A stretch of 64,000 bases of DNA, from NCBI GenBank assembly GCA_030141605.1, contig JAQGDQ010000761.1, forward strand, positions 1 through 64,000. The letters are read 5' to 3'. The notes beneath the pieces were generated by a model. That model was not told where the DNA came from, did no database searches, and was given only the letters and a program-made list of their open reading frames with translations. The position numbers were made by a program, and so were the translations under genes. Position 1 is the stretch's first letter. Every line of letters starts with the position of its first letter. The stretch comes from Tubiluchus corallicola (Eukaryota > Priapulida > Priapulimorpha > Priapulimorphida > Tubiluchidae). Positions 1 through 1,562 of the stretch are shown piece after piece.

Positions 1-1562
1 GTGATTCATAACTCAAATTACAGAAAACTACAGGTAGACGGCTGGGATTCACCTGTGATTCATAACTCAAATTACAGAAAACTACAGGTAGACGGCTGGG
101 ATTCACCTGTGATTCATAACTCAAATTACAGAAAACTACAGGTAGACGGCTGGGATTCACCCGTGATTCATAACTCAAATTACAGAAAACTACAGGTAGA
201 CGGCTGGGATTCACCTGTGATTCATAACTCAAATTTCAGAAAACTACAGGTAGACGGCTGGGATTCACCCGTGATTCATAACTCAAATTACAGGCTGGGA
301 TTCACCTGTGATTTACAAGTCAAATTACAGAAAACTACAGGTAGACGGCTGGGATTCACCTGTGATTCATAACTTAAATTACAGGCTGGGATTCACCTGT
401 GATTTACAAGTCAAATTACAGAAAACTACAGGTAGACGGCTGGGATTCACCTGTGATTCATAACTTAAATTACAGAAAACTACAGGTAGACGGCTGGGAT
501 TCACCTGTGATTCATAACTCAAATTACAGAAAACTACAGGTAGACGGCTGGGATTCACCTGTGATTCATAACTCAAATTACAGAAAACTACAGGTAGACG
601 GCTGGGATTCACCCGTGATTCATAACTCAAATTACAGGCTGGGATTCACCTGTGATTTACAAGTCAAATTACAGAAAACTACAGGTAGACGGCTGGGATT
701 CACCTGTGATTCATAACTTAAATTACAGAAAACTACAGGTAGACGGCTGGGATTCACCTGTGATTCATAACTTAAATTACAGAAAACTACAGGTAGACGG
801 CTGGGATTCACCTGTGATTTACAAGTCAAATTACAGAAAACTACAGGTAGACGGCTGGGATTCACCTGTGATTCATAACTCAAATTACAGAAAACTACAG
901 GTAGACGGCTGGGATTCACCTGTGATTCATAACTCAAATTACAGGCTGGGATTCACCTGTGATTCATAACTCAAATTACAGAAAACTACAGGTGAGGCTG
1001 GGATTCACCTGTGATTCATAACTTAAATTACAGAAAACTACAGGTAGACGGCTGATTCACTTGATTCATTAAATTACAGCTGGGATTCACCTGTGATTCA
1101 TAACTTAAATTACAGAAAACTACAGGTAGACGGCTGGGATTCACCTGTGATTTACAAGTCAAATTACAGAAAACTACAGGTAGACGGCTGGGATTCACCT
1201 GTGATTCATAACTTAAATTACAGAAAACTACAGGTAGACGGCTGGGATTCACCTGTGATTCATAACTCAAATTACAGAAAACTACAGGTAGACGGCTGGG
1301 ATTCACCTGTGATTCATAACTCAAATTACAGAAAACTACAGGTAGACGGCTGGGATTCACCTGTGATTCATAACTCAAATTTCAGAAAACTACAGGTAGA
1401 CGGCTGGGATTCACCTGTGATTCATAACTTAAATTACAGAAAACTACAGGTAGACGGCTGGGATTCACCTGTGATTCATAACTCAAATTACAGAAAACTA
1501 CAGGTAGACGGCTGGGATTCACCTGTGATTCATAACTCAAATTACAGAAAACTACAGGTAGA
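1..1562 (-). repeat. 54-bp minisatellite that amplifies the CLTC intron 14/exon 15 junction
   Basis: About 29 head-to-tail units of 54 bp. On the minus strand each full unit is 27 bases of intron end (TTCTGTAATT...GAATCACAG) followed by 27 coding bases GTGAATCCC... that read VNPSRLPVV, the exact residues expected after EIYVQK in clathrin. The full unit is 18 codons with no stop, so runs of units stay open (VNPSRLPVV then FCNLSYESQ). Some units (near 289, 376, 630 and 941) lack 17 bp and shift to an immediate stop (VNPSL then TAA); a degenerate stretch lies at about 1030-1085. Each unit has a possible acceptor CACAG that is immediately followed by GTGAAT, itself donor-like. The true exon 15 continuation is beyond base 1. 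Confidence 0.93.

What the first reader, a model, noticed from the sequence alone, without database searches (positions are those of the whole stretch)
1..1562. A splice junction with coding sequence amplified into a ~29-copy tandem array
Each 54-bp unit holds the 3' splice site of CLTC intron 14 and the first nine codons of exon 15 (VNPSRLPVV), in the phase that exon 14 needs. The cell is therefore offered about 29 near-identical acceptors. Full units are 18 codons with no stop, so use of an upstream copy could insert 18-residue repeats into the clathrin leg; units with a 17-bp deletion create stops, so many choices would give truncated, decay-prone transcripts. This could tune clathrin level or simply be tolerated because one copy wins. 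An expansion that straddles an essential gene's exon boundary is very unusual.
Basis: partly seen in the sequence, partly recalled or inferred. Interest (0 to 1): 0.9.

Follow-up and report, generated by a model that had tools for sequence, protein, structure and literature searches.

The report
Repeat array over clathrin splice junction
In one of this animal's two clathrin genes, a 54-base piece spanning an intron-exon border has been copied about thirty times, most likely a tolerated "mirage" minisatellite of a kind already described in lancelets, although the sequence breaks off inside the array and the real exon is missing.

Summary
Bases 1-1562 are a 54-bp tandem array. Each unit carries, on the minus strand, the end of clathrin heavy chain intron 14, a splice junction and, in full units, nine exon-15 codons (VNPSRLPVV), in the phase exon 14 needs. 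Corrections: 26 of 29 junctions are AG (3 are GG). Only 3 of those 26 read open to base 1; 23 meet a stop. Two of 22 full units carry an in-frame TGA.

Base 1 is the end of contig C514, so copy number is a minimum and the authentic exon 15 is unseen. The genome has a second, compact clathrin gene (C246) with an ordinary exon 15. The window's gene appears to resume on C1187; its exons 15-17 were found in no contig. It shows strong purifying selection on both sides of the gap.

Tandem duplication of splice junctions is a known kind: "mirages", described in lancelet Adh, globin, troponin C and PGBD5 genes and reported or thought not to disturb splicing. Best reading: a mirage-type minisatellite, born by slippage and tolerated. 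AG|GT junctions could also act as 5' splice sites, so stepwise removal is possible but unproven. Nothing shows regulation. The host was not identified.

The parts
1..1562 (-). 54-bp tandem array spanning the intron 14/exon 15 boundary of CLTC copy B; truncated by the contig end at base 1
1523..1562 (-). partial first unit (40 bp): 13 exon-derived + 27 intron-derived bases, ending in the first AG|GT junction
1469..1522 (-). first full unit: GTGAATCCC...CACAG, nine exon codons then 27 intron-type bases
1009..1090 (-). rearranged 82-bp unit; the following unit (957-1008) is 52 bp
920..956 (-). 37-bp unit with the 17-bp deletion (others: 613-649, 360-396, 269-305); gives VNPSL-stop
215..268 (-). 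full unit with in-frame TGA (T33A); the other one is 1361-1414
1..214 (-). only stretch that stays open from unit junctions to the contig end (AG acceptors with first exonic base 214, 106, 52; the one at 160 is GG)
1563..2416 (-). rest of intron 14 of CLTC copy B
2213..2216 (-). juxtaposed acceptor/donor (gctttttag|GTAAAT; acceptor score 9.1, donor 6.0), a ratchet-point-like site in intron 14
2417..2635 (-). CLTC copy B exon 14 (AACKTG...IYVQK), donor AAG|gtaaga
2417..55549 (-). CLTC copy B exons 1-14; no stop within the exon matches (exon 1 is a short match, E 0.22)

Best explanation
It is a mirage-type minisatellite. A segment of 27 intron bases plus 27 exon bases across the intron 14/exon 15 boundary of the second clathrin heavy-chain gene (copy B) was tandemly duplicated, then expanded and rearranged by slippage and unequal exchange (inferred). 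The amplified unit carries the whole junction, so each expansion leaves an intact acceptor next to exon 15; the last copy, beyond base 1 and unseen, would be the authentic acceptor (inferred). Upstream junctions are weak decoys: most lead to stop codons, so their use would be purged by decay, and the gene tolerates them because normal splicing wins (inferred; reported for other mirages). Expansion is unsurprising in this gene, about 17% of which is tandem repeat.
For: The array and its boundary content are direct. The exon part is copy B's own exon 15: against copy A it has 5 synonymous and 0 amino-acid differences in 9 codons. The intron position is shared with copy A, so it predates the array. 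Block patterns such as 'a a b d' and 'd s' recur along the array, as in unequal exchange. Junction acceptors score 2.8-4.0 against 0.6-10.1 for 13 real acceptors of this gene. Copy B is constrained on both sides of the gap: 91% amino-acid identity to A over 1397 residues, dN 0.065 with NG86 dS not computable, fourfold sites 72-73% different against 7.5-7.6% at codon positions 1+2. Tandem repeats fill 17.4% of copy B in C514 and 17.3% of its C1187 part, against 0.8% of copy A. Precedent: mirages, including an acceptor-side one in lancelet BflGb6.
Against: The authentic acceptor, the array's downstream edge and exons 15-17 were not found in the assembly, so 'last copy wins' is untested. No RNA data. 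The exon-derived half of 22 full units has no substitution while all 6 variable positions lie in the other half (P 0.011; 0.055 if counted as 4 events), which could hint at constraint on the exon part. The left edge carries 13 exon-derived bases, so the founding event was not a simple boundary duplication. The lancelet paper itself says the extra AG/GT signals could be used as cryptic sites, and in human paralogs repeats at exon-intron boundaries are linked to new introns and alternative transcripts.
Confidence: 0.68

Rival explanations
1. Recursive-splicing ladder: each CAG|GTGAAT junction is both acceptor and donor; joining exon 14 (AAG) to any unit regenerates AAG|GTGAAT, which can be used again as a donor, so the array is removed in steps and every path to the last copy gives the same mRNA.
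For: 26 of 29 junctions are juxtaposed AG|GTGAAT. CAG|GTGAAT scores 5.7 and the regenerated AAG|GTGAAT 5.0 as donors, not far below the weakest real donors of the gene (6.9), and above the other unit GTs scored (1.5 or less; the GG variant of the junction 2.3). Intron 14 holds another AG|GTAAAT at 2214 with acceptor 9.1 and donor 6.0. Recursive exons with a donor at their 5' end are known in Drosophila, including 51-nt Ubx microexons (PMC8605326, outline with abstract and section 12 read).
Against: The donor score is below all 13 real donors tested (6.9-11.4). Ordinary exons of this gene also begin GT (exons 6, 7, 10, 12; exon 6 regenerates CAG|GTGAGC, 7.1), so the feature is not specific. Copy A, without an array, also starts exon 15 with GTGAAT. 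The section read says its data are consistent with the exon junction complex suppressing regenerated splice sites. No RNA evidence.
Confidence: 0.12
2. Regulatory decoy: the array titrates splicing so that a fraction of copy B transcripts carries premature stops and decays, setting clathrin B level according to repeat number.
For: 23 of 26 AG junctions lead to a stop after at most 110 codons.
Against: Also expected from neutral decay of an array. Nothing in the sequence shows selection for it, and the paralog has no array at this place. For lancelet mirages the passages read report or suggest normal mRNAs.
Confidence: 0.06
3. Assembly problem: the array is over-expanded or wrongly attached at a contig end, and the true exon 15 boundary is simple.
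For: The contig starts inside the array; exons 15-17 were not found; the likely partner contig C1187 also ends in an 85-bp array.
Against: The 22 full units fall into 5 sequence types, with deleted units in an ordered pattern, which a consensus artefact would hardly create; the junction with the unique intron 14 is inside the contig at 1562. Copy number may still be wrong.
Confidence: 0.1

Closest known systems
Mirage minisatellites of lancelets (Adh3; globins BflGb6 and BflGb9; troponin C; PGBD5). PMC3087553, passages read; PMC3902484, passages read; the original Adh paper (Canestro 2002) not held
   Same: Tandem units contain an intron-exon boundary with AG/GT signals; BflGb6 is the same acceptor-side geometry (3' end of intron + 5' part of exon); homogenised units; assembly trouble is noted there too.
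   Different: Here at least 29 copies of 54 bp in phase, in a clathrin gene, against 3 and 6 units of 150-160 bp in BflGb6 and unit lengths of 10-72 bp in Adh3; host lineage not established here; no RNA evidence and no second haplotype here.
Human IFI6/G1P3 minisatellite with multiple splice donor sites (Turri et al. 1995; recalled; look-up by recalled DOI found nothing; one search listed 4 papers holding that phrase, none opened)
   Same: A minisatellite whose units each carry a splice site at an exon boundary (recalled).
   Different: Donor rather than acceptor side, 12-bp units (recalled).
Variable internal tandem repeats in human segmental-duplication paralogs (PMC2812944, passages read)
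   Same: Minisatellite expansion at exon-intron boundaries in duplicated genes.
   Different: There young primate paralogs with putative new introns; here an old paralog and an intron shared with the other copy.
Drosophila recursive splice sites / RS-exons (PMC8605326, outline and section 12 read)
   Same: Juxtaposed acceptor and donor; 51-nt microexons of similar size.
   Different: Sites shown by experiment; here 26 weaker sites in tandem, untested.

Membership tests
Mirage minisatellite | Tandem repeat units span an exon-intron boundary of a gene | tested here: met
   27 exon + 27 intron bases per full unit across intron 14/exon 15
Mirage minisatellite | Many, not all, units keep AG/GT splice signals | tested here: met
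   26 of 29 junctions AG|GT, 3 GG|GT
Mirage minisatellite | Authentic boundary lies at the edge of the array | tested here: inconclusive
   contig ends inside the array; exon 15 of copy B not found in the assembly
Mirage minisatellite | mRNA is spliced normally despite the extra sites | not testable with these tools
   no RNA data
Mirage minisatellite | Copy number differs between haplotypes or cells | not testable with these tools
   one assembly, no reads
Mirage minisatellite | Host is a cephalochordate (all cases read) | tested here: inconclusive
   organism not identified: PF00379 0 hits with all 14 controls silent, COX1 0 hits while 8 of 14 controls rang, PF14830 did not complete
Recursive splicing (ratchet) sites | Acceptor and donor juxtaposed (AG|GT) | tested here: met
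   26 of 29 junctions CAG|GTGAAT
Recursive splicing (ratchet) sites | Sites strong enough to be used | tested here: inconclusive
   acceptor 2.8-4.0 (real 0.6-10.1), donor 5.7 (real 6.9-11.4) with a matrix from 13 sites each
Recursive splicing (ratchet) sites | Recursive lariats or junction intermediates in RNA | not testable with these tools
   no RNA data
Intron gain by AGGT tandem duplication | The duplication creates an intron at a new position | tested here: not met
   paralog A has an intron at the same place without an array

The most novel reading that the evidence does not exclude
The array is a working ladder of 26 or more juxtaposed acceptor/donor sites that is removed stepwise or left in part, so that repeat number alters how clathrin copy B is spliced: a length-variable minisatellite acting as a multi-step recursive splicing element in a clathrin gene.
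Probability: 0.1. Interest if true: 0.75.

Novelty: new member of a known kind. Interest (0 to 1): 0.42.

Why it matters
It is a long example of splice-junction amplification, in a conserved gene that has a clean paralog in the same genome as a built-in control. That makes a general question testable in one animal: how does splicing choose one of some thirty near-identical acceptors, and does repeat number matter? It also suggests that contigs can break inside such arrays and drop coding exons: here three exons of a clathrin gene were not found in the assembly.

Tried and rejected
Special attraction of arrays to splice sites: not supported. 22 arrays of introns 1-13 were placed at random within their introns; 2, 3 and 6 of 22 lay within 30, 50 and 100 bp of a splice site against 1.3, 2.1 and 3.9 expected (P 0.39, 0.35, 0.10). 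The two arrays of intron 14, those beyond exon 1 and rows overlapping larger arrays were left out. A direct test for boundary copies within 3 kb gave 0 of 53 sites in copy A, and 1 of 26 and 1 of 24 in the two parts of copy B, against 2, 38 and 52 of 300 random positions each. The hit among the 26 is a miscalled donor (15817; the real one is 15879), so I dropped it. Adding exon 15's acceptor by hand gives 2 of 50 against 90 of 600 for copy B, Fisher P 0.03, binomial P 0.014; without exon 15 it is 1 of 49, P 0.009. If anything boundaries are depleted.

Pseudogene: rejected by conservation on both sides of the gap. YN00 failed and NG86 dS came back undefined, so I rely on dN and fourfold sites. 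Intron gain: rejected (shared intron). Selection on the exon half: weak only. Relatives: a viral-contig scan with exons 13-14 and the nine codons found none. In the genome search the 600-bp array query matched only C514 (4 places; that search skips very common words), and the 27-bp exon part with up to 3 mismatches matched 23 times, all on C514 (copy A's version has 5 differences and is outside that limit). Copy B exons 15-17 at E up to 10: 3 matches, all of them copy A's exons.

Limits: splice matrices rest on 13 acceptors and 13 donors of one gene; exon 3's donor was ambiguous and left out. Splice sites were called automatically. That C514 and C1187 are one gene is inferred.

Full report
Observation. 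On the minus strand the window holds clathrin heavy chain (CLTC) exons 1-14, from 55,549 down to 2417 (tblastn; splice sites). Bases 1-1562 are a 54-bp tandem array with 29.7 copies. Read in the gene's direction a unit is GTGAATCCCAGCCGTCTACCTGTAGTT TTCTGTAATTTGAGTTATGAATCACAG. The first 27 bases encode VNPSRLPVV. Joined to exons 13-14 they lie inside a 169-residue match to PDB clathrin heavy chains (E 7e-102). Exon 14 ends in phase 0 with AAG|gtaaga. So the unit does contain the intron 14/exon 15 junction in the right phase. The full unit matches 22 times with up to 3 mismatches, against 0 in 100 shuffles.

Anatomy. The array has 29 unit junctions in the window, 26 AG|GT and 3 GG|GT. There are 22 units of 54 bp, 4 of 37 bp, one of 82, one of 52 and one cut off by base 1. 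All 6 variable positions of the full units (33, 39, 41, 44, 46, 53) are in the intron-derived half (chance 0.011; 0.055 if three linked changes count as one event). Two full units have an in-frame TGA; the 37-bp units read VNPSL-stop. If exon 14 were joined to each AG junction in turn, 23 of 26 would meet a stop after at most 110 codons and 3 (first exonic bases 214, 106, 52) stay open to base 1. The unit order shows recurring blocks (a a b d; d s), as expected from unequal exchange. The left edge starts inside a unit: 13 exon-derived bases precede the first intron part. This is either a 13-bp chance repeat that seeded the slippage or a later truncation; exact 12-bp direct repeats 30-70 bp apart occur at 16 of 51,083 non-array positions tested.

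The rest of the gene. The genome is held: 343.5 Mb in 2344 contigs, and the window is C514:1-64000, so base 1 is the contig's end. A protein search with CLTC from residue 807 gave 27 matches on two contigs. Copy A on C246 (exon 1 at 475,784, last match near 493,000; matches from human residue 1 to 1672) has an ordinary exon 15 at 485,098: catattttag|GTGAATCCAAGTCGATTACCGGTAGTTATTGGC. C1187 carries human residues 973-1670 of a second copy and ends, at its exon-15 side, in an 85-bp array. C514 and C1187 together make copy B, with residues 808-972 (exons 15-17 by copy A's structure) in neither; that the two contigs belong to one gene is inferred from complementary coverage. A second search for these exons at E up to 10 gave 3 matches, all of them copy A's exons.

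Is copy B alive? A and B share 91% of 1397 compared residues; dN is 0.065 and NG86 dS is undefined, as at saturation. Fourfold sites differ at 196 of 272 (C514) and 153 of 210 (C1187), codon positions 1+2 at only 7.5-7.6%. Exon 14, next to the array, is 98.6% identical in protein to A. The array's own nine codons differ from A by 5 synonymous changes and no replacement. So the gene has been under purifying selection on both sides of the gap. Whether the array is older or younger than that constraint is unknown.

Why here? Tandem repeats cover 17.4% of copy B in C514, 17.3% of its C1187 part and 0.8% of copy A. Given that, an array that hits a boundary needs no special mechanism: in copy B, splice junctions are duplicated less often than random gene positions (2 of 50 with exon 15 added by hand, against 90 of 600), and arrays are not significantly closer to splice sites than random. 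One further boundary duplication exists in copy B: at C1187 39,308 the end of the exon for human residues 1256-1308 and its donor (CTCTTG|GTAAGC) recur 199 and 363 bp downstream.

Mechanism. Shown: amplification of a unit that includes the junction; intact AG in 26 of 29; an intron that predates the array, because A has it too. Inferred: expansion leaves one intact acceptor next to exon 15, which wins; upstream junctions are used rarely, and their products mostly decay. The junction acceptors are within the range of real ones but low (2.8-4.0 against 0.6-10.1). As donors they score 5.7, and 5.0 when regenerated after exon 14, below the 13 real donors (6.9-11.4). A stepwise, recursive removal is therefore possible in principle but not favoured.

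Known kind. [quoted passage not shown] One of them, BflGb6, is acceptor-sided like this one, with 6 and 3 units in two haplotypes. The authors say that Adh3 data and their RT-PCR suggest regular splicing is not disturbed, while noting that the extra signals could serve as cryptic sites. PMC3902484 adds troponin C and PGBD5. The original Adh paper was not held. In human paralogs, repeats at exon-intron boundaries are linked to new introns and alternative transcripts (PMC2812944, passages). This array meets the structural definition of a mirage with more copies than the globin examples read. I could not establish the host: an arthropod cuticle family gave no hit but the controls were silent too, COX1 gave none, and a mollusc-specific family (label recalled) did not complete. 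If the host is not a lancelet, this would extend mirages to another lineage; I make no claim that this is unreported.

Verdict. A real, well-read observation of a known kind, in one of two clathrin genes, with the key exon not found in the assembly. Interest is moderate: a long natural series of near-identical acceptors, with a clean paralog as control.

Noticed in passing
   Followed up: partly
G000:C1187 38953-39318 (-): Donor-side boundary duplication in CLTC-B: exon end plus 5' splice site CTCTTG|GTAAGC recurs 199 and 363 bp downstream.
   Followed up: partly
window 14648-15853 (-): 43-bp x 27 array in intron 5 begins within about 25 bases of the exon 5 donor.
   Followed up: partly
window 6196-6314 (+) and 28618-28724 (-): 5S rRNA matches (109 and 40 bits); the first lies just before a sequence whose translation recurs near 20.4 and 22.7 kb, perhaps a 5S-derived repeat.
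   Followed up: no
G000:C1187 43152-43653 and 47780-48138: What looks like the same 24-bp minisatellite unit occurs as arrays in two different introns of CLTC-B.
   Followed up: no
window 2213-2216 (-): A juxtaposed acceptor/donor (acceptor 9.1, donor 6.0) in intron 14, about 200 nt after exon 14.
   Followed up: no
window 29825-33790: 113-bp x 35 array of about 4 kb in CLTC-B intron 1.
   Followed up: no
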